Source of the DNA: a virus
Reading direction: 5' to 3' (one strand)
IMG/VR virus record: IMGVR_UViG_3300042691_022010
Coordinates: 1-35,944 of that record
Length of the DNA: 35,944 nucleotides
Shown here piece by piece: positions 3 to 12,943 of the stretch (positions are counted from its first letter, which is position 1; each line of letters opens with the position of its first letter). The position numbers and the translations under genes were made by a program. The notes beneath the pieces are model-generated. The model was not told where the DNA came from, ran no database searches, and saw only the letters and a program-made list of their open reading frames with translations.

Positions 3-302
3 ATTTCGCACCATTCCGGAGAGCTCACCAACGGCTACACCTACCGCAACGTCCCCTGCGAGGTTCGCTTCGACGCGCCGAAGAAGGGCATGAAGCAGAC
101 CGTCCGGCTCGACACCGGCGAGACCATCGAAACGGCCGCGATGACCCTGGGCGAGATGCAGGCCGAGTTGCCGGGCATTCCGGCCGAGGCGACCGCCACC
201 CGGCCGGAGCGCAAGCCCTCCCGCACCGTTTCAGCGAGCGGAGTCGTCGTCACCGACGGTGACGGGGACGCCTTCCTCGACGACCAAGACACCAACCCCT
301 GA
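3..302 (+). CDS. Partial hypothetical protein (5' end outside window)
   Basis: The frame is open from the first bases of the window to a TGA at 300-302, giving about 99 residues of a C-terminal part. An internal ATG at 90 exists, but the frame continues upstream with normal codon use, so the true start is probably outside. The visible sequence is hydrophilic, has a Thr/Glu-rich middle and ends in an acidic tail (GDGDAFLDDQD). I do not recognise the family. It lies 13 bases before the P-loop ATPase gene and in the same direction, so it is probably part of the early replication/recombination operon. Confidence 0.6.
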   Translation: MSHHSGELTNGYTYRNVPCEVRFDAPKKGMKQTVRLDTGETIETAAMTLGEMQAELPGIPAEATATRPERKPSRTVSASGVVVTDGDGDAFLDDQDTNP

Positions 303-315
303 CCATTTTTTCACC

Positions 316-1539
316 ATGCCACTCAACATCATTCGCGGAAAGAAGGCCGGAGCCATCCGCGCCGTCATTTACGGGACCGAGGGGATCGGCAAGTCGACCC
401 TCGCCGCCCAGATCCCAGGCGCTGTCATCATCGACACCGAGGACGGGACGGGTCAGATCGACGCCGCCCGCGTTCTCGCGCTCGACTGGCGGGCGATCGA
501 GCACGCGGTCAAGGAATTGACCGCCGACCCGCAGGGCTTTTCTGCCGTCGTCATCGACACCGCCGATTGGCTCGAAAAGGCGCTGATCGAACACGTCCTC
601 CGGCAGGCGGGAAAAAAGTCGATTGAGGACTTCGGCTACGGGAAAGGCTACACGATCATCCAAGAGCACGTCGTCCGCTTCCTCGGATCCGTTGACCAGC
701 TAGTTGCGAAGGGAGTCCACGTTGTCTTCGTCGCCCATTCGAAGGTCACGCGGACCAGCCCGCCGGATCAGACCGACGGCTATGACCGCTTCGAACTCAA
801 GCTGACCAAGCAGGTCGCCCCCCTTCTCAAGGAGTGGGCCGACTTGGTTATCTTCTGCAACTACCGCGTCCAGATCGTCGAGGGCACCGATGGCCGACTG
901 AAGGCCCAAGGCGGCCGCGAGCGGATCATGCACGCCGTCCATTCGGCCGCGTGGGACGCAAAGAACCGCTTCGGGCTCCCGGACGAGCTCCCGATGGAGT
1001 TCGCGAAGATTGCGCACCTCTTCACCGGGCACGCTTCCCGAACGGAACCCGAGGCCAAGGCGGCCGCGGTCGAGGCTGCGCTCATCGCTGACCCCAAGCC
1101 TGCTCCCGCCCCTGCCCAGGCTGCTCCGCCGGCGAAGCCCGAGATGATTGAGTTGTCGCTGGCGACCAAAGAGCAGGTCGCGCAGCTCGACGCTTTGAGA
1201 GGTAAGCCCGGCAGCCGCGCTTTTGAAGTCATCGACGACTACATGGAGCGCCTCAACGCCCTAGACTTCGGGGAACTCACGGTCGAGCAGGCCGCCGAGC
1301 TTTTGAATCTACTGCAAAACGGTCCGGCCGGCTGGGAGAAACACAGCGCTCGCCTCGCCTGGCTTGAGCAGAACAGCGAGGCCGCCACGGCCTACCTCCA
1401 ACGGGTCGGTTGGGTCTCCGCCGGCCAGACCTGGCGAGACCTTCCGGCTGACCGCGTGCAGACCTGTGTCGAGAAGTGGGAAAAGTTCACGCAGGCGGTC
1501 CTCGCGCCCGCCGCAAAGACCGGGAGGAAGGCCGCATGA
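316..1539 (+). CDS. P-loop ATPase, Sak4/RecA-like recombination protein
   Basis: This 407-aa protein has a Walker A at residues 20-28 (GTEGIGKST), a Walker B at 77-82 (AVVIDT) and a VAHSK sensor-like segment near 139-143. That order fits the AAA_24/Sak4-type phage ATPases, which are RecA-like and help single-strand annealing or recombination. After about residue 250 an Ala/Pro-rich linker leads to a C-terminal helical part of about 130 residues that I do not recognise; Sak4 proteins are usually shorter. The ATG at 316 was chosen over the upstream ATG at 259 because it removes a low-complexity leader, avoids a 44-base overlap with the previous gene and has the CCATG context common here. A DUF669-like gene, a helicase and a nuclease downstream support a recombination/replication role. 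The annealing function is inferred from family. Confidence 0.8.
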   Translation: MPLNIIRGKKAGAIRAVIYGTEGIGKSTLAAQIPGAVIIDTEDGTGQIDAARVLALDWRAIEHAVKELTADPQGFSAVVIDTADWLEKALIEHVLRQAGKKSIEDFGYGKGYTIIQEHVVRFLGSVDQLVAKGVHVVFVAHSKVTRTSPPDQTDGYDRFELKLTKQVAPLLKEWADLVIFCNYRVQIVEGTDGRLKAQGGRERIMHAVHSAAWDAKNRFGLPDELPMEFAKIAHLFTGHASRTEPEAKAAAVEAALIADPKPAPAPAQAAPPAKPEMIELSLATKEQVAQLDALRGKPGSRAFEVIDDYMERLNALDFGELTVEQAAELLNLLQNGPAGWEKHSARLAWLEQNSEAATAYLQRVGWVSAGQTWRDLPADRVQTCVEKWEKFTQAVLAPAAKTGRKAA

Positions 1540-2267
1540 GCGACTCCCTCCTTATCACTCCAGCCTTGGCCGATGCAGCCGTCACGGCCGCCGACGCCGC
1601 CCGACTTGAGCGAGACGATCTGGTCGCCCGCTCCCAGTCCATCACGACCGTCTCCGACCGCCTCGACGCTGATCACGCGACCGCGTTCCTCCGCGACGCG
1701 AAAAGCTACCTGACGGGAATCGAAGCGGCCCGCACCCGGGCCAAGGCTCCGGTCCTCGAGATCGGCAAGCGCATCGACGCCCTCGCGAAAGATCTCGTCG
1801 CCCAGGTTCAGGCCGAATCGACGCGCATCTCTCGCGTTCTCGGAGCCTTCGAGCTTGAAGAGAAGCGCAAAGCCGACGAGGCCCGATGGCTCGCGGAAAA
1901 CGAAGCTCGCCGCGTCGCGGACGAATCACTCCGGAAAGCAGCGGCCGCCCGAAGCGCCGCACCCGACGCACTCGCCGCCGATCGGGCCGCCGACGTGGTC
2001 ACCGCTCAGGCAGCCGAGCAGATCGTCGCCCTAAAGCAGGCGGCCGCCAACGCCGCGCCCGCCCGCCAAGCGGGGACCGCAGTCAGGGAAGACGTCGTCT
2101 TTGAGGTCACCGACATCCGTGCTCTCCACTCCGCTCATCCCGAGCTCGTGACGCTCGAGCCTAACGGCGCCGCGATCCGGGCCATCCTCCGCGCAAACCC
2201 CAACCTTCAAGTCCCAGGCCTCCGCCATTGGCGCGAGGCGAAGCTCAACATTCGCAACCATGCCTAA
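1536..2267 (+). CDS. Coiled-coil protein of the recombination module
   Basis: This is a 243-aa protein whose ATG overlaps the stop of the ATPase gene (ATGA), with GGGAGGAAGG as a clear ribosome-binding site. Residues about 40-150 are rich in Ala, Glu, Lys and Arg with heptad-like spacing and probably form a long helix or coiled coil. The last 60 residues form a compact domain (FEVTDI, HPELV, PGLRHW) of a type often seen in phage early regions beside Sak4-like and DUF669-like genes. I cannot assign a biochemical function. Its position suggests an accessory factor for the ATPase or for ssDNA handling. An upstream in-frame ATG at 1476 was rejected because it lies inside the ATPase gene. Confidence 0.75.
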   Translation: MSDSLLITPALADAAVTAADAARLERDDLVARSQSITTVSDRLDADHATAFLRDAKSYLTGIEAARTRAKAPVLEIGKRIDALAKDLVAQVQAESTRISRVLGAFELEEKRKADEARWLAENEARRVADESLRKAAAARSAAPDALAADRAADVVTAQAAEQIVALKQAAANAAPARQAGTAVREDVVFEVTDIRALHSAHPELVTLEPNGAAIRAILRANPNLQVPGLRHWREAKLNIRNHA

Positions 2268-2742
2268 CCTAGAAAATCCCGGCCGCTACGCGGCCCAAGT
2301 AAACGAGGCTGAATTTGGTGAGTCCCAGACCGGGACGCCATACGTCGTCCTCCGCATCGCCACCGATGGGGGCGCGTTCATCAACGCCTACCTCTACCTT
2401 TCCGAAAAGGCCCTTGCCAACTCGGTCAAAACGCTCCGCGACGCGTTCGACTTCAACGGCGACTTCGAGACTCTGGTCGAGCAGGTCGTCACGAAGCCGT
2501 GCTCCATCACGGTCGAGACTGAAGTGTACGAGGGGAAGGAGCGCCTTCGCGTGAAATGGATCAACGGGCCGCGCACCTCAAAGCCGATCGACAACCAAGA
2601 GGCGTTTTTGAAAGCGCTCTCCGCGAAGGCCGCACGGATCCCGAAGGATGCCCCGAAGCCTGCGCCGAAGGCTGCGCCTTCAAGCGCACCGACGCGGCCC
2701 GCCCCCGCCCCTGCACCGAAGCCCGCCACGAATCCCTTCTGA
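2260..2742 (+). CDS. DUF669-like putative ssDNA-binding protein
   Basis: This is a 160-aa protein. Residues 1-105 form a beta-rich domain with alternating hydrophobic strands (TPYVVLRI, AYLYLS, ITVETEVYEGKERLRVKWI). Residues 106-160 are a Lys/Pro/Ala tail ending in NPF. A globular fold followed by a flexible tail with a terminal Phe recalls phage SSB-like proteins such as DUF669, where the tail contacts partners; that comparison is from family knowledge, not from an alignment. It overlaps the preceding gene by 8 bases and its stop overlaps the helicase start. Binding of ssDNA during replication is inferred from the fold pattern and neighbours. Confidence 0.65.
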   Translation: MPNLENPGRYAAQVNEAEFGESQTGTPYVVLRIATDGGAFINAYLYLSEKALANSVKTLRDAFDFNGDFETLVEQVVTKPCSITVETEVYEGKERLRVKWINGPRTSKPIDNQEAFLKALSAKAARIPKDAPKPAPKAAPSSAPTRPAPAPAPKPATNPF

Positions 2743-7566: not shown

Positions 7567-7694
7567 CGCCCGACCCCACCCCCCCCATAAGGAATCTTTT
7601 GCCGGGTCGGACGCTCGCAGGGGCCAAAACCAGACCGGTCCTTAACCGAGCGTTAAATCCTGGGTTCCCCCTTAACTCCAACCCCCTCCGATGA
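7563..7694 (+). CDS. Tiny ORF (43 aa) or cos-region spacer
   Basis: An ATG at 7563 overlaps the previous stop and runs 43 codons to a TGA that overlaps the small-terminase ATG at 7691. Both junctions are ATGA, like the other coupled genes here, which is the main reason to think it is translated. The peptide has no recognisable domain and its codons are less GC3-biased than in its neighbours. The alternative is that this stretch is noncoding: lambda-like phages with Nu1/GpA terminases carry the cos site just before the small terminase gene. The palindrome GACCGGTC lies in the middle. Confidence 0.4.
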   Translation: MTPDPTPPIRNLLPGRTLAGAKTRPVLNRALNPGFPLNSNPLR

Positions 7695-8329
7695 CTCAAG
7701 CCGACTATGCCAAGACCGCCGGGCTGACCCGCGCCCGCGTTTGCCAGATGGTCAAGGCCGGGATGCCGCTCGACTCGAAGGAGGCCGCGGACCAATGGCG
7801 ACTCCGCCACGTCAACGGAGCGGTCCACCGCCAAGGCCTCGGGCTCGCAAAGGCCGCGGAGGCTGATCCCTACGCGCAGCCGGCGGTCGCCCCCTCTCGA
7901 CCGCCCGAGGCGGACCAGCCGGTTGAAGGCGCCAAGGCCTCGGACGACACGCCTCAAGGAGCCTACGAACGCCAGCGCCAGATCGAGCGGGCCGCCTACT
8001 CCCTCGCCGCGAAGGCGCTGAAGGAGCAGCGGGCCGAGGCAAAGAACTTGGTCGCCGTCCACGGCCAAGCCGCCCGCAACCTGGCGCAACTCCGCCTCGA
8101 GGTCCTCGCGGTCGCGGAGCGGGAGCGGACTTTGGTCTCGGGCGAATGGGTCCGGAAGATCATCACCGAGCACGACGGCGCAGTCGTGCAGCTCGTCCGA
8201 GCCATGCCGAAGCAGCTCGCTGGCCGAATCTCGCCCCATGACCCCGAGCACGCCGAGCGAGAGCTCGAGCGCTGGGCTCAGGAGGTCTTCCTCAAGACGC
8301 TATACAAGACCGACCCTTTCACGAAATGA
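7691..8329 (+). CDS. Terminase small subunit (Nu1-like)
   Basis: This is a 212-aa protein. Residues 1-45 are a winged-helix/HTH of the Nu1 type (TQADYAKTAGLTRARVCQMVKAGMP), which in lambda binds cosB. A Pro/Ala linker follows, then a long helical region from about residue 95 for self-assembly, and a C-terminal part that should contact the large subunit. The GpA-type large subunit downstream supports the call. One gene, the HKD protein, separates the two subunits, which is unusual. The start overlaps the previous stop and has no clear SD sequence. Confidence 0.82.
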   Translation: MTQADYAKTAGLTRARVCQMVKAGMPLDSKEAADQWRLRHVNGAVHRQGLGLAKAAEADPYAQPAVAPSRPPEADQPVEGAKASDDTPQGAYERQRQIERAAYSLAAKALKEQRAEAKNLVAVHGQAARNLAQLRLEVLAVAERERTLVSGEWVRKIITEHDGAVVQLVRAMPKQLAGRISPHDPEHAERELERWAQEVFLKTLYKTDPFTK

Positions 8330-8333
8330 CCGC

Positions 8334-9032
8334 ATGATCGACGAGCTTGCCGACATCATCGCCGCCGCGCCCGACCTCGAGGGCGTCGACCTGGACGCCA
8401 TCGACCTGGACGGGCTACCAACACGTCCGACCGAGCGCCCGCCGGGCAAGGAGAAACCCAAGCCACCGGGCGAGGCAGCGGGAATCGGTTTCCGGACCAA
8501 GGTCACGACCACGGTCGAGCGCCGCCGTTTCTACGACCTCCGAAACGTCCCGAACGCGGTCGAGCTGATCCGCCCGCTCCCCAAGCGCCGCGAAACGATT
8601 CACGCCATCATGGGAGGCGACTTCACCGCCTGGGACCTAGTCCCGGCAATTCTCAACCTCGCCGGCAAACCCGCCCGCGCTTTCTTCGCCGCCACCCTGG
8701 GCTTCAACGCGCAAAACAGCCACCACCTCTGCCAGCTCATGGCCGCCGGTGAGATCCAGGCCGCGACCGTCCTCTGCTCCGACTACTTCTCGAAGGCGGA
8801 CGCGAAAACCTACGGTGAAGCAAAGACCAAGCTCGCCAAGGTCGGCGGAGTCCTCAACTCGACGCGCAACCACGCCAAGATCCTGGCGCTGGACTTCGGC
8901 GCTGACGCCTACGTCGTCGAGGCCTCGGCGAATCTCCGGTCCTGCAATAACCTGGAGCAGATCGCGCTTTCCAACGACCGCGCCCTCTTCGACTTCCACC
9001 GCTCCTGGATTTCCTCCGTCACCTCGACATGA
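8334..9032 (+). CDS. Single-HKD phospholipase-D-like putative nuclease
   Basis: This is a 232-aa protein. Residues 1-50 are an acidic, then Pro-rich, tail. The domain from about 55 contains one HKD motif, HAKILALD (H180, K182, D187), followed by SAN (S198, N200) at the spacing of the GSxN element of the PLD superfamily. PLD enzymes use two His residues; proteins with one motif, such as Nuc or BfiI, form a dimer site. Most phage PLD-like members are nucleases rather than lipases. It lies between the terminase subunits and overlaps the large-subunit start (ATGA), so a role in packaging or genome-end processing is likely. No second HKD or other nuclease motif is visible. Catalytic activity is inferred. 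Confidence 0.65.
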   Translation: MIDELADIIAAAPDLEGVDLDAIDLDGLPTRPTERPPGKEKPKPPGEAAGIGFRTKVTTTVERRRFYDLRNVPNAVELIRPLPKRRETIHAIMGGDFTAWDLVPAILNLAGKPARAFFAATLGFNAQNSHHLCQLMAAGEIQAATVLCSDYFSKADAKTYGEAKTKLAKVGGVLNSTRNHAKILALDFGADAYVVEASANLRSCNNLEQIALSNDRALFDFHRSWISSVTST

Positions 9033-10864
9033 CCGCCGCCACCTTGAACGACCTCCAGCGCTCGCTCCTCGACTACCGCAGAAGCATCTACCGCCCGACC
9101 CCGAAGAAGACGGTGGTCGAGTGGTGCGAGGAAAACCTCCGCCTGACGACCCGCCAGACCGAGCACCCCGGCCCTTTCTCGACCGCCGTCCGCCCCTACA
9201 CCCGCGAGGTCTTGGAATGCTTCAAGGATCCCGCCGTGACCGACGTGGTCCTCTGCTGGGGCTCGCAGACCGCCAAGACGATGAGCCTCATGGCCGGGCT
9301 CGCGTGGCTCATAGACAACGAGCCCTCGCCGCTTTTGTGGCTCATGCCGACCGAGAGCCTGGCGAGATCCTTCGCGAAGACCCGGTGGCTTCCGATGCTC
9401 GCGGACTCCCCGACTATGGTCCGCCACTTCCCGGACGACAGGCACAAGCTCACCACGCTCGAGCAGCATTTCGACCATTGCACGCTCAACTTCGTCGGGA
9501 GCAACTCGCCGGCAAACCTCGCCTCCCGTCCGATCCGCGTCCTGGTGGCGGACGAGGTCGACAAGTTCGCCCAGGCGACCGAGCGGGAAGCGGCCGCGCT
9601 CGACCTGGCCATGCAGCGCACGAAGAGCTTTTCCAGCTCGAAGCACTTCCTCACCTCGACGCCGACCGTGTCCGAGGGTGACATTTGGCAACAGTTTCTC
9701 CGGGGCGACCAGCGGCGCTATTTCATCCCTTGCCCGCATTGTGGCGAAAAGATCCGGCTCGAATGGAAGCAGGTCAAGTGGGAGACCGAGAAGGACGAGG
9801 CCGGCAAAACCAACCTCGCCAAGGTCCGCTCCTCGGCACGCTACGAGTGCCAACTTTGCGGAAAGGACATCTCTGACGCGCACAAGGTCGCCGCGCTCCG
9901 GGCGGGCGAATGGAGGCCCGAAAACCCGAGCGCCATCCCCGGCGTCCGGTCCTACCACCTTTCCAGCCTCTACTCGCCCGACAGGAAATGCACTTGGGGC
10001 TTGCTCGCGGTCGCGTTCCTCGAGGCCAAGGAAAGCCTCAGCACCCTCGCGCTCCAGGGCTTCATCAACGGGATGCTCGCGGAACCATGGGAAAACCAAG
10101 GAGCACCGGCCGAGCGGACCGAGATCATCGTCTCCTCCGCCGAGGCCATCGACCAGACGGCGGTCAAGTTCCTGACCGTCGACTTCCAAGCGCGGGCGCC
10201 GTTTTTCTGGTTCGTGGTCCGCTCCTGGGACGCCGCCGGCAACTCCCGAGCAATCGACGCCGGTCCGCTCGACACTTGGCAGGACATACGGGACAAGCAG
10301 GTCGAGCACGACATCCACGATACTCACGTCTGCATTGATTCAGGCTATGAAGCGTCGACCGTGTATGCGGAGTGCTTGCGGTGGGGAAAATTCCACCAGC
10401 GCAGCTTCAAAGTCCCGCTGTTCCTTGGCTGGATGCCGTCAAAGGGCGTCCCTCGCCGCGGCTGGCGTGACAAAAAATCCGGAGTCGAAGTCCCCTTTTT
10501 TTTGCAAGGCATCGACCCGCGAATCGGAACGACCAACGGAGCCAAGCTGGAGCTCAAACTTCTGGAATTCGCCACCGACACCACCAAAGACATCCTGGAG
10601 CGGATCCGCCGGGGCCAAGTCGCGCAACGCTGGGAGGTCGCGGACAAGGTAGCTACCCCGGAATATTGGCGCCACCTCGACGCGGAGCGCAAGGTCGCCA
10701 AGTTTTACAGCAACTCGGGCCGCACGACTTATACCTGGCTTCCGAAAAGCCGGAAGTGGCCGAACCACCTCTTCGATTCCGAGGTGATGCAAGTCGCCAT
10801 GGCAGTCTTTCACAACCGCCTACGTTTCCAGGCGGCCGCCGAAAATGAGCAACCCGCACCCTGA
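9029..10864 (+). CDS. Terminase large subunit (GpA family)
   Basis: This 611-aa ATP-driven packaging motor and nuclease has an N-terminal ATPase with Walker A GSQTAKT (78-84) and Walker B VLVADE (171-176). A four-Cys zinc ribbon follows (C235, C238, C274, C277), as in many GpA-family members. The C-terminal nuclease domain has acidic residues near D385 (TVDF) and D437 (CIDSG). Length and motif order fit the lambda GpA family, which normally cuts at cos sites. The start overlaps the HKD gene. A run of eight T at 10496-10503 lies in frame (Phe-Phe-Leu) and shows no sign of a functional frameshift. Confidence 0.95.
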   Translation: MTAATLNDLQRSLLDYRRSIYRPTPKKTVVEWCEENLRLTTRQTEHPGPFSTAVRPYTREVLECFKDPAVTDVVLCWGSQTAKTMSLMAGLAWLIDNEPSPLLWLMPTESLARSFAKTRWLPMLADSPTMVRHFPDDRHKLTTLEQHFDHCTLNFVGSNSPANLASRPIRVLVADEVDKFAQATEREAAALDLAMQRTKSFSSSKHFLTSTPTVSEGDIWQQFLRGDQRRYFIPCPHCGEKIRLEWKQVKWETEKDEAGKTNLAKVRSSARYECQLCGKDISDAHKVAALRAGEWRPENPSAIPGVRSYHLSSLYSPDRKCTWGLLAVAFLEAKESLSTLALQGFINGMLAEPWENQGAPAERTEIIVSSAEAIDQTAVKFLTVDFQARAPFFWFVVRSWDAAGNSRAIDAGPLDTWQDIRDKQVEHDIHDTHVCIDSGYEASTVYAECLRWGKFHQRSFKVPLFLGWMPSKGVPRRGWRDKKSGVEVPFFLQGIDPRIGTTNGAKLELKLLEFATDTTKDILERIRRGQVAQRWEVADKVATPEYWRHLDAERKVAKFYSNSGRTTYTWLPKSRKWPNHLFDSEVMQVAMAVFHNRLRFQAAAENEQPAP

Positions 10865-11106: not shown

Positions 11107-11471
11107 TGGCGATTTCGTCAACCTTCGCTCGCGGCTTCGTCCGCAAACTTTGGCGCGATGCTCAAGCGTCGGGCAAGCCATTGCTTGCAGTCCTCGAAGC
11201 CGCCTCCGACTCCGCGCAGGCTTCCGCCGGATCCGGCAAGACCATCGCCGCGACGAGCGGGAACGGGCGCTCGGTCACCTACCAAGTCACAAGCGGAGAC
11301 GCCTCCCCTGCTGACATCCTCGAATTGACCGCCCGGCTCCTCGACCTTTACGACCGCGCAGTCGCAGAGCTCGGCGGAGCTCCGACGGACGCCGCAACCT
11401 TCGGCAAAATCCTCTCGTATCTAGTCGGCGTCCGCTCTTTCCGGCCGCGATTCCTCACGCTTGAACGATGA
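11106..11471 (+). CDS. Putative head-completion/connector protein
   Basis: This is a 121-aa protein with a GTG start; upstream stops close the frame at 11076-11100. The N-terminal half is Ala/Ser-rich. The C-terminal half has helices (DILELTARLLDLYDRAVAELG) and a basic end. It lies directly before the portal gene and overlaps its start by four bases, the position of gpW in lambda, but I see no clear gpW signature and it is longer than gpW (68 aa). The role is from position only. Confidence 0.5.
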   Translation: MAISSTFARGFVRKLWRDAQASGKPLLAVLEAASDSAQASAGSGKTIAATSGNGRSVTYQVTSGDASPADILELTARLLDLYDRAVAELGGAPTDAATFGKILSYLVGVRSFRPRFLTLER

Positions 11472-12943
11472 AGATCGCCGACGCCACCCGCTCTTTCTTC
11501 CGCAGGTTCCGCAACCGCTACGAAGGCGCCCGGCAGAGCCCCGGCCGGTCCCGCGTCCCTGGCGTCGTCCAGGCCGCCCGCTTCGACGCGACGGTCGCGG
11601 ACCGGACCGAGCTCGTCCGAAAGGCCCGCTACTTCGAAAAGAACAACGCCATCGTCAACCGGATGGCGGACCTCTTCGAGCAATACACCGTCGGAAACGG
11701 GCTCCAATTCTTCGCCGCGTCCAGCTCGCCCGCCTGGAATGTCGAGGCGAGCGCCTTCTGGTCCGAGTGGAAGCGTTTCGCCGACCTGTCCGGCCCTCTC
11801 AACTTTGACTCCCTCCAGGGCATCATCGCCCGGACGCTCTTCGTGGACGGCGAGGTTTTCATCGTCCTGACCAAGGGCGCCACGAACCGCCCGCGGATCC
11901 AGCTCATCGAGGGGCACCGTTGCGCGACGCCTGGCACGATGAAGGAGGGCGAGGGCATCATCGACGGCGTCGAGATCGACACCAACGGGCGGCCGGTCGC
12001 CTACCACTTCCTCGAGAGCGAGGACCAGCTCACCAAGAAGACCTTCCGCCGGGTCGCCGCCGACTTCGTCATCCACATTTTCGAGCCGAGCCGCGCCGGT
12101 CAATATCGGGGCATCCCGTACCTTCACCCGGTCATAAATGACCTGAACGACCTCGACGATCTCCAAAACCTAGAAATGAAGGCCGCGAAGGACGCGGCCG
12201 CCATTTCCCGCGTAATCAAGACCGAGACGGGCGAGATCGAGGACGAAGATTTGCTTCGCGGAAGCGTCACGCAGTCGGACAACTCCACCCGCGACGAATA
12301 CTACAAGGACGTTTTCGGCCCCGAGGTCAAAGTCCTCAAGACCGGCGACGAAATGGAGCAGTTCGCCTCCAGCCGGCCGAACGTCGCGTCCCAAGATTAC
12401 TGGGACTACCTGACCGCCAAGGTCTGCGCCGGCGTCGGAATCCCCAAGGAGCTTGTCCTCCCGTCCAGCATCAACGGCACCATGACCCGCGCCGTCCTGG
12501 ACATGGCGAATACGTTTTTCCGCACGCGGAGCGCAGTCCTCGCCGATCACCTTCGGCACGTCTACGAATACGTTATTGAGTCAGGGATCCGGCTTGCCCC
12601 TACCCTGCAACCTCCCCCGCCCGATTGGTTTCGATCCGTTGCCCGCGCTCCGCGTGCGGTCAACGTCGACGTGGGTCGCAACTCCGCCGCCATGATCGCG
12701 GAGTGGAAGTCCGGGATGCGGACGCTCCAGGACATCTACGCCGAGGTCGGACAGGATTGGCGCGAACAGCTCACCCAGAAGGCCGAGGAAATGGCCTTTG
12801 TGAAACAGCTCGCCGAAGGCCTCGGGCTTGAACGCGCCGAGATTGTCCAGCTCGACCCGAACGAACTCTCCGCCGCAAACGCCCAGGCGACACTCGCCGG
12901 CCCCGACGACCGCGAAGACGACGACGAAAACTCAACCCCCTGA
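11468..12943 (+). CDS. Portal protein (lambda gpB-like)
   Basis: This is a 491-aa protein. Features fitting lambda-type portals (Phage_portal_2) are the basic N-terminus, YFEKNNAIVNRMADLF, the strand-rich FVDGEVFIV segment near residue 120, 'IHIFEPSRAGQYRGIPYL' near 200, and a helical C-terminus ending in an acidic tail. It forms the dodecameric ring at one capsid vertex through which DNA passes. It overlaps the previous stop (ATGA). The protease/scaffold gene follows directly, the same order as B-C-Nu3 in lambda. Confidence 0.9.
   Translation: MKIADATRSFFRRFRNRYEGARQSPGRSRVPGVVQAARFDATVADRTELVRKARYFEKNNAIVNRMADLFEQYTVGNGLQFFAASSSPAWNVEASAFWSEWKRFADLSGPLNFDSLQGIIARTLFVDGEVFIVLTKGATNRPRIQLIEGHRCATPGTMKEGEGIIDGVEIDTNGRPVAYHFLESEDQLTKKTFRRVAADFVIHIFEPSRAGQYRGIPYLHPVINDLNDLDDLQNLEMKAAKDAAAISRVIKTETGEIEDEDLLRGSVTQSDNSTRDEYYKDVFGPEVKVLKTGDEMEQFASSRPNVASQDYWDYLTAKVCAGVGIPKELVLPSSINGTMTRAVLDMANTFFRTRSAVLADHLRHVYEYVIESGIRLAPTLQPPPPDWFRSVARAPRAVNVDVGRNSAAMIAEWKSGMRTLQDIYAEVGQDWREQLTQKAEEMAFVKQLAEGLGLERAEIVQLDPNELSAANAQATLAGPDDREDDDENSTP

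What the first reader, a model, noticed from the sequence alone, without database searches (positions are those of the whole stretch)
8334..9032. PLD-type (HKD) putative nuclease between the terminase subunits
Seen: one HxKx4D with SxN at PLD spacing, in a gene lying between Nu1-like and GpA-like subunits and overlapping the latter. Known: HK97-like cos phages often need an HNH endonuclease beside terminase for packaging; PLD nucleases with one motif dimerise. Inference: this protein may replace HNH as a packaging cofactor, or trim genome ends. I know of no described role for a PLD-type enzyme there.
Basis: partly seen in the sequence, partly recalled or inferred. Interest (0 to 1): 0.75.

Follow-up and report, generated by a model that had tools for sequence, protein, structure and literature searches.

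The report
Terminase-linked PLD nuclease in phages
A phage gene wedged between the two DNA-packaging genes encodes a Nuc/NucT-type nuclease, and relatives of it sit just upstream of the packaging motor gene in dozens of unrelated phages, which suggests a little-noticed accessory nuclease of phage DNA packaging.

Summary
Window 8334-9032 encodes a 232-aa protein between a TerS-like gene and a GpA-type TerL gene; its stop codon overlaps the TerL start (ATGA). The predicted fold (pLDDT 86) matches the PLD nucleases NucT (Z 14.1) and Nuc (Z 14.0). In 62 non-redundant relatives H180, K182, S198, N200 and E208 are essentially invariant; the motif Asp is not. 54 of these 62, found with PLD-only queries, have TerL within 2.3 kb downstream on the same strand, across seven local TerL groups, and the tree needs at least 14 switches of TerL type. 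So the association with the packaging locus is recurrent. It is an accessory: only 2 of 80 close TerL relatives carry it, the same slot elsewhere holds DNA-modification genes or nothing, and TerL keeps its own nuclease triad. Replacing HNH is not shown: HNH is absent beside PLD in the contigs sampled, but two isolated phages carry both. Best reading (about 50%): a dimeric, metal-independent nuclease acting on DNA in or before packaging. Rivals: modification-linked defence nuclease, or general nuclease parked in the late operon. I found no paper describing the terminase link; SEA-PHAGES annotators already name some relatives 'NucT-like nuclease'.

The parts
7691..8329 (+). terminase small subunit-like gene (TerS, Nu1-like by position and HTH), 212 aa
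   Evidence: phrog_57 E 0.009; predicted N-terminal HTH plus long helices, pLDDT 72; conserved next to GpA TerL in most of the control loci
8334..9032 (+). PLD-type nuclease, 232 aa
8334..8507 (+). N-terminal low-confidence tail, acidic/hydrophobic (residues 1-58); a similar tail recurs in relatives
   Evidence: pLDDT 53-73 by block; composition and alignment
8586..9029 (+). PLD fold domain (residues 85-232)
   Evidence: VIA-align ranges against NucT 6ehi and Nuc 1byr, Z 14
8871..8894 (+). HxKx4D motif (H180, K182, D187)
   Evidence: H and K invariant, D variable
8925..8933 (+). S198-A-N200 of the PLD motif
   Evidence: S 61/62, N 62/62
8955..8960 (+). E208-Q209, probable active-site Glu (counterpart of the conserved Glu of Nuc-type enzymes)
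   Evidence: E 62/62, Q 56/62; counterpart role is inference
9029..9032 (+). ATGA overlap of nuclease stop and TerL start (possible translational coupling)
   Evidence: the next gene starts at or before the PLD stop in 32 of 62 relatives
9029..10864 (+). terminase large subunit, GpA type, 611 aa, ATPase and nuclease domains
   Evidence: PF05876, PF20454; phrog_15 6e-122; D385, D437, D583 invariant in close relatives
11468..12943 (+). portal protein, lambda family (context)
   Evidence: PF05136 5.5e-59

Best explanation
The gene encodes a small Nuc/NucT-type phosphodiesterase with one catalytic motif that probably works as a homodimer, using two H180 at a shared active site and no metal, and expressed in one operon with TerS and TerL. 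It most likely processes phage DNA at or just before packaging: removing single-stranded branches, flaps, gaps or nicks from replicated concatemers, or helping TerL at the initiating or terminal cut. Shown here: fold, conserved catalytic residues, purifying selection, and recurrent placement beside the terminase. Inferred: nuclease activity, dimer, substrate, and action in packaging.
For: Fold: AlphaFold model pLDDT 86; VIA-align Z 14.1 NucT, 14.0 Nuc, then SauUSI, Zucchini, PLD3, NgoAVII and BfiI. Catalytic set H180/K182/S198/N200/E208 nearly invariant over 62 sequences under 80% identity. dN/dS about 0.08-0.28 in pairs of relatives. Synteny: 54 of 62 non-redundant relatives, found with PLD-only queries, have TerL 2.3 kb or less downstream on the same strand; one more has it at 4.2 kb, and two (the L059/L064 group) have a TerS-like gene directly downstream and a Terminase_6N-type gene about 7 kb downstream. 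TerL types: GpA, phrog_2, phrog_38, phrog_979, Duneviridae type, Gordonia type. The PLD tree needs 14 TerL-type changes against a minimum of 7: the terminase is swapped but the neighbourhood stays. Next-gene overlap in 32 of 62. In Gordonia BetterKatz the gene is gene 1 at the left genome end, ahead of TerS and TerL. NucT prefers single-stranded regions, gaps and 3' overhangs and works in EDTA (PMC5714352).
Against: It is dispensable to this terminase type: 2 of 80 close TerL relatives carry it, and 3 of 80 phrog_2-type ones. The slot also holds modification genes unrelated to cutting, so position alone does not prove a packaging role. TerL keeps its own nuclease triad. Some relatives lie away from terminase (Arthrobacter LittleTokyo; L031) or beside the portal with TerL several kb upstream (Bacteroides BT-TP2). 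No biochemical data.
Confidence: 0.5

Rival explanations
1. It is the nuclease arm of a DNA-modification or defence cassette that happens to sit at the terminase: it cuts DNA lacking (or bearing) the phage's modification, like PLD restriction enzymes (BfiI, NgoAVII, SauUSI).
For: 24 of the 100 PLD loci examined carry a ParB/methyltransferase gene, in most cases directly next to PLD, including the close relatives L017, L037 and L038. In related phages the TerS-TerL slot holds Mom, TAGT glycosyltransferase, Tet/JBP or methyltransferase genes. Fold neighbours include NgoAVII, SauUSI and BfiI.
Against: No such methyltransferase was detected in about three quarters of the PLD loci (many are short, so its share is a lower bound), and none among the window genes scanned. 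There is no recognisable DNA-specificity domain. An unpaired restriction enzyme would attack its own genome.
Confidence: 0.2
2. A general phage nuclease (host DNA breakdown, nucleotide scavenging, repair or recombination) that is merely parked at the start of the late operon.
For: Nuc and NucT are non-specific. The Arthrobacter relatives lie near an SSB and other DNA-metabolism genes. The slot tolerates varied cargo. The window also has an exonuclease, SSB and Sak4-like annealing gene.
Against: Cargo drift should scatter the gene; instead 54 of 62 relatives stay within 2.3 kb upstream of TerL through 14 inferred changes of TerL type.
Confidence: 0.22
3. A non-nuclease PLD activity, such as removal of protein or phosphate adducts from DNA ends (Tdp1-like) or a lipid phosphodiesterase.
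For: The PLD fold also serves TDP1, PS synthase and polyphosphate kinase.
Against: The best structural matches are the small single-motif nucleases NucT and Nuc; no membrane segment or signal peptide is evident in the sequence.
Confidence: 0.06

Closest known systems
NucT of Helicobacter pylori and Nuc of plasmid pKM101 (PLD nuclease subfamily)
   Same: Same fold (Z 14.1 and 14.0), single catalytic motif, His/Lys/Ser/Asn kept
   Different: About 10% sequence identity; no signal peptide evident; acidic N-terminal tail; motif Asp not conserved and motif loop longer; tied to phage terminase genes
'NucT-like nuclease' of SEA-PHAGES Gordonia and Arthrobacter phages; PHROG families 16945 (endonuclease) and 20533
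   Same: Detectable homologues; same fold (Arthrobacter phage Galaxy); in Gordonia BetterKatz also ahead of TerS/TerL
   Different: Annotated by resemblance only; Arthrobacter copies are not next to terminase; no packaging role stated in the records
Terminase-associated HNH proteins (HK97 gp74)
   Same: Small accessory nuclease coded beside TerS/TerL; in five control records HNH lies about 0.9-1.5 kb upstream of TerL, the same slot as PLD
   Different: Unrelated fold and chemistry (HNH is metal-dependent); gp74 stimulates cos cleavage by TerL (PMC9410871), nothing comparable is known for PLD; both occur together in BetterKatz
PLD-type restriction enzymes BfiI, NgoAVII, SauUSI
   Same: PLD catalytic domain with related fold
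   Different: They carry DNA-recognition or helicase domains; none seen here, and no methyltransferase partner found among the window genes scanned

Membership tests
PLD superfamily, Nuc/NucT nuclease subfamily | alpha/beta PLD fold of about 150 residues | tested here: met
   Model residues 85-232, Z 14.1 NucT, 14.0 Nuc
PLD superfamily, Nuc/NucT nuclease subfamily | Catalytic His and Lys (HxK) conserved | tested here: met
   H 61/61, K 60/61 of aligned non-redundant relatives
PLD superfamily, Nuc/NucT nuclease subfamily | Full HxK(x)4D(x)6GSxN signature | tested here: inconclusive
   HxKx4D and SxN present, but A for G and 3 extra residues; Asp not conserved in the family. Pfam PLDc_2 not hit by the window protein; relatives hit it just below cut-off
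PLD superfamily, Nuc/NucT nuclease subfamily | Homodimer with a shared active site, metal-independent | not testable with these tools
   One motif per chain implies it; no complex prediction available
Terminase-associated packaging nuclease (as for HNH gp74) | Gene recurrently adjacent to TerS/TerL | tested here: met
   54 of 62 within 2.3 kb upstream of TerL, same strand
Terminase-associated packaging nuclease (as for HNH gp74) | Stimulates cos cleavage / needed for packaging | not testable with these tools
   Needs biochemistry or phage genetics
Terminase-associated HNH family | HNH (beta-beta-alpha metal) domain | tested here: not met
   PLD fold instead; no PF01844 in the window record
PLD-type restriction endonuclease | Partner methyltransferase | tested here: not met
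   None among the window genes scanned (not every tail-side gene was scanned); present in 24 of 100 related loci

The most novel reading that the evidence does not exclude
A widespread second class of packaging nuclease: a metal-independent PLD dimer that works with TerS/TerL (cutting, trimming or debranching DNA for packaging), acquired or retained repeatedly across several terminase types and filling a role comparable to HNH proteins.
Probability: 0.35. Interest if true: 0.75.

Novelty: new variant of a known kind. Interest (0 to 1): 0.55.

Why it matters
Terminase accessory nucleases are known mainly as HNH proteins. A PLD nuclease family that stays beside the terminase while the terminase itself is exchanged points to a DNA-processing step in packaging that is not in current models, and isolated phages (Gordonia BetterKatz, Flavobacterium Duneviridae) make it testable now.

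Tried and rejected
Close-relative scan of IMG/VR with the window protein alone found nothing; profile scans did. The E2F-like hit over residues 61-80 is judged a chance match (RRRFYDLRNV). No similar plasmid gene. TerS fold search gave no significant match, so TerS identity rests on weak profile, shape and position. The idea that PLD is a hallmark of this TerL type was rejected (2 of 80). Simple PLD/HNH replacement was rejected as unproven. R-M pairing for the window is disfavoured for lack of a methyltransferase in the genes scanned. Literature searches found no paper on a PLD-terminase link, but the library lacks most subscription journals and the key HNH paper.

Full report
What is there. 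The window is a 35,944-base virus record. ORF 8334-9032 encodes 232 aa, starts 4 nt after the upstream gene's stop and ends in ATGA shared with the TerL start. TerL is a two-domain GpA-type protein whose presumed RNase H-like nuclease triad (D385, D437, D583) is invariant in close relatives (assignment of the triad is mine). The upstream gene is TerS-like by weak profile, an HTH plus helices prediction and position; a fold search did not settle it.

Is it a PLD protein? Pfam does not hit it, but distant relatives hit PLDc_2 just under threshold, and PHROG families 20533 and 16945 ('endonuclease') match. A model built on 48 relatives has pLDDT 86. Foldseek ranks NgoAVII, SauUSI, NucT, PS synthase and Zucchini high; VIA-align puts NucT (Z 14.1) and Nuc (Z 14.0) first. 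The nearest viral models include a NucT-like nuclease of Arthrobacter phage Galaxy.

Is the catalytic set kept? Over 62 sequences below 80% identity: H180 61 of 61 aligned, K182 60 of 61, S198 61 of 62, N200 62 of 62, E208 62 of 62, Q209 56 of 62; D187 is variable. The exceptions are one contig lacking the motif stretch (L046), one fused or frameshifted ORF (L111) and Arthrobacter with T for S (L114). dN/dS in pairs is about 0.08-0.28. The strict motif is rare by chance.

Is the terminase link real? Relatives were found with PLD queries only, so the neighbourhood was not selected for. TerL was found with local HMMs seeded from annotated or profile-confirmed TerLs, except the Duneviridae-type seed, which is called TerL from its similarity to the annotated terminase of Bacteroides phage BT-TP2. 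Of 62 non-redundant members, 54 have TerL within 2.3 kb downstream on the same strand, one at 4.2 kb, two contigs are too short, and five lack it within the held DNA. Two of those five (the L059/L064 group) have a TerS-like gene directly downstream and a Terminase_6N gene about 7 kb on; the Bacteroides phage has the gene next to the portal with TerL upstream; L031 and the Arthrobacter phage are real exceptions. Orders seen: TerS-PLD-TerL (window), TerS-MTase-PLD-TerL (L037, L038), TerS-PLD-ParB-MTase-TerL (L017), and most often PLD-TerS-TerL. The next gene overlaps the PLD stop in 32 of 62.

Does it follow one terminase? No. The tree needs 14 changes of TerL type where 7 is the minimum (quick tree, long branches, so approximate). 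L040 and L043 have similar PLD proteins but different TerL families. Conversely, among 80 relatives of the window's TerL only 2 have PLD, and both were already in the PLD set; among 80 phrog_2-type TerL loci, 3. So PLD is an accessory that comes and goes, but when present it is nearly always at this place.

What else fills the slot? In window-type phages the TerS-TerL gap is empty or holds ParB-like plus methyltransferase, Mom (PF25680), TET-associated glycosyltransferase (PF20691) or Tet/JBP (PF12851) genes. This supports a rival in which the slot is a DNA-modification island. Against it, the methyltransferase was found in 24 of 100 PLD loci and not among the window genes scanned. HNH (PF01844) was found over cut-off in 2 of 49 PLD records and 9 of 49 controls; by my arithmetic on the coordinates it lies within 2.3 kb upstream of TerL in 0 and 5 respectively (one-sided Fisher about 0.03, records related, so descriptive only). 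BetterKatz has both enzymes.

How it may work. By analogy to NucT (dimer, active in EDTA, endonuclease on single-stranded regions and gaps, catalytic His; PMC5714352), the protein would pair two H180 across a dimer and cleave without metal. A nuclease preferring single-stranded features could clean flaps, gaps and branches from concatemers so that the motor does not stall, or assist the initiating cut. HK97 gp74 shows that a small phage nuclease can stimulate cos cleavage by TerL (PMC9410871). Substrate, dimer and packaging role are inference. The acidic tail might dock a partner or guard the active site; that is speculation.

Verdict. Observation confirmed; interpretation partly supported; a known enzyme kind in a recurrent, apparently undescribed association.

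Noticed in passing
L115-L194 (TerL relatives), e.g. L160:1846-2610, L128:1684-2577, L177:4192-5022: The TerS-TerL junction of window-type phages is a variable slot holding DNA hypermodification genes (Mom, TAGT glycosyltransferase, Tet/JBP, methyltransferase), usually behind a ParB-like gene, or nothing.
   Followed up: partly
window 8334-8507; L102:2017-2100: The PLD family carries an N-terminal acidic/hydrophobic tail (e.g. MKTDFNFDLNIDVDIDIDL) of similar character in distant members; role unknown.
   Followed up: partly
L064:6602-7576, L029:6050-7117, L028:4822-5583: TerS-like genes following PLD share a roughly 40-aa N-terminal motif although their bodies differ.
   Followed up: no
L046:3434-4066: A PLD relative lacking the stretch that holds the HxK motif while keeping SANL and EQ; assembly error or inactive copy.
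   Followed up: no
window 259-2742: Recombination module: Sak4-like annealing protein, exonuclease and SSB-like genes.
   Followed up: no
L113:139-792 and L195:9907-10269: Gordonia phage BetterKatz has NucT-like gene 1 near the left genome end and an HNH gene near the right end, so the two nucleases coexist in one phage.
   Followed up: yes
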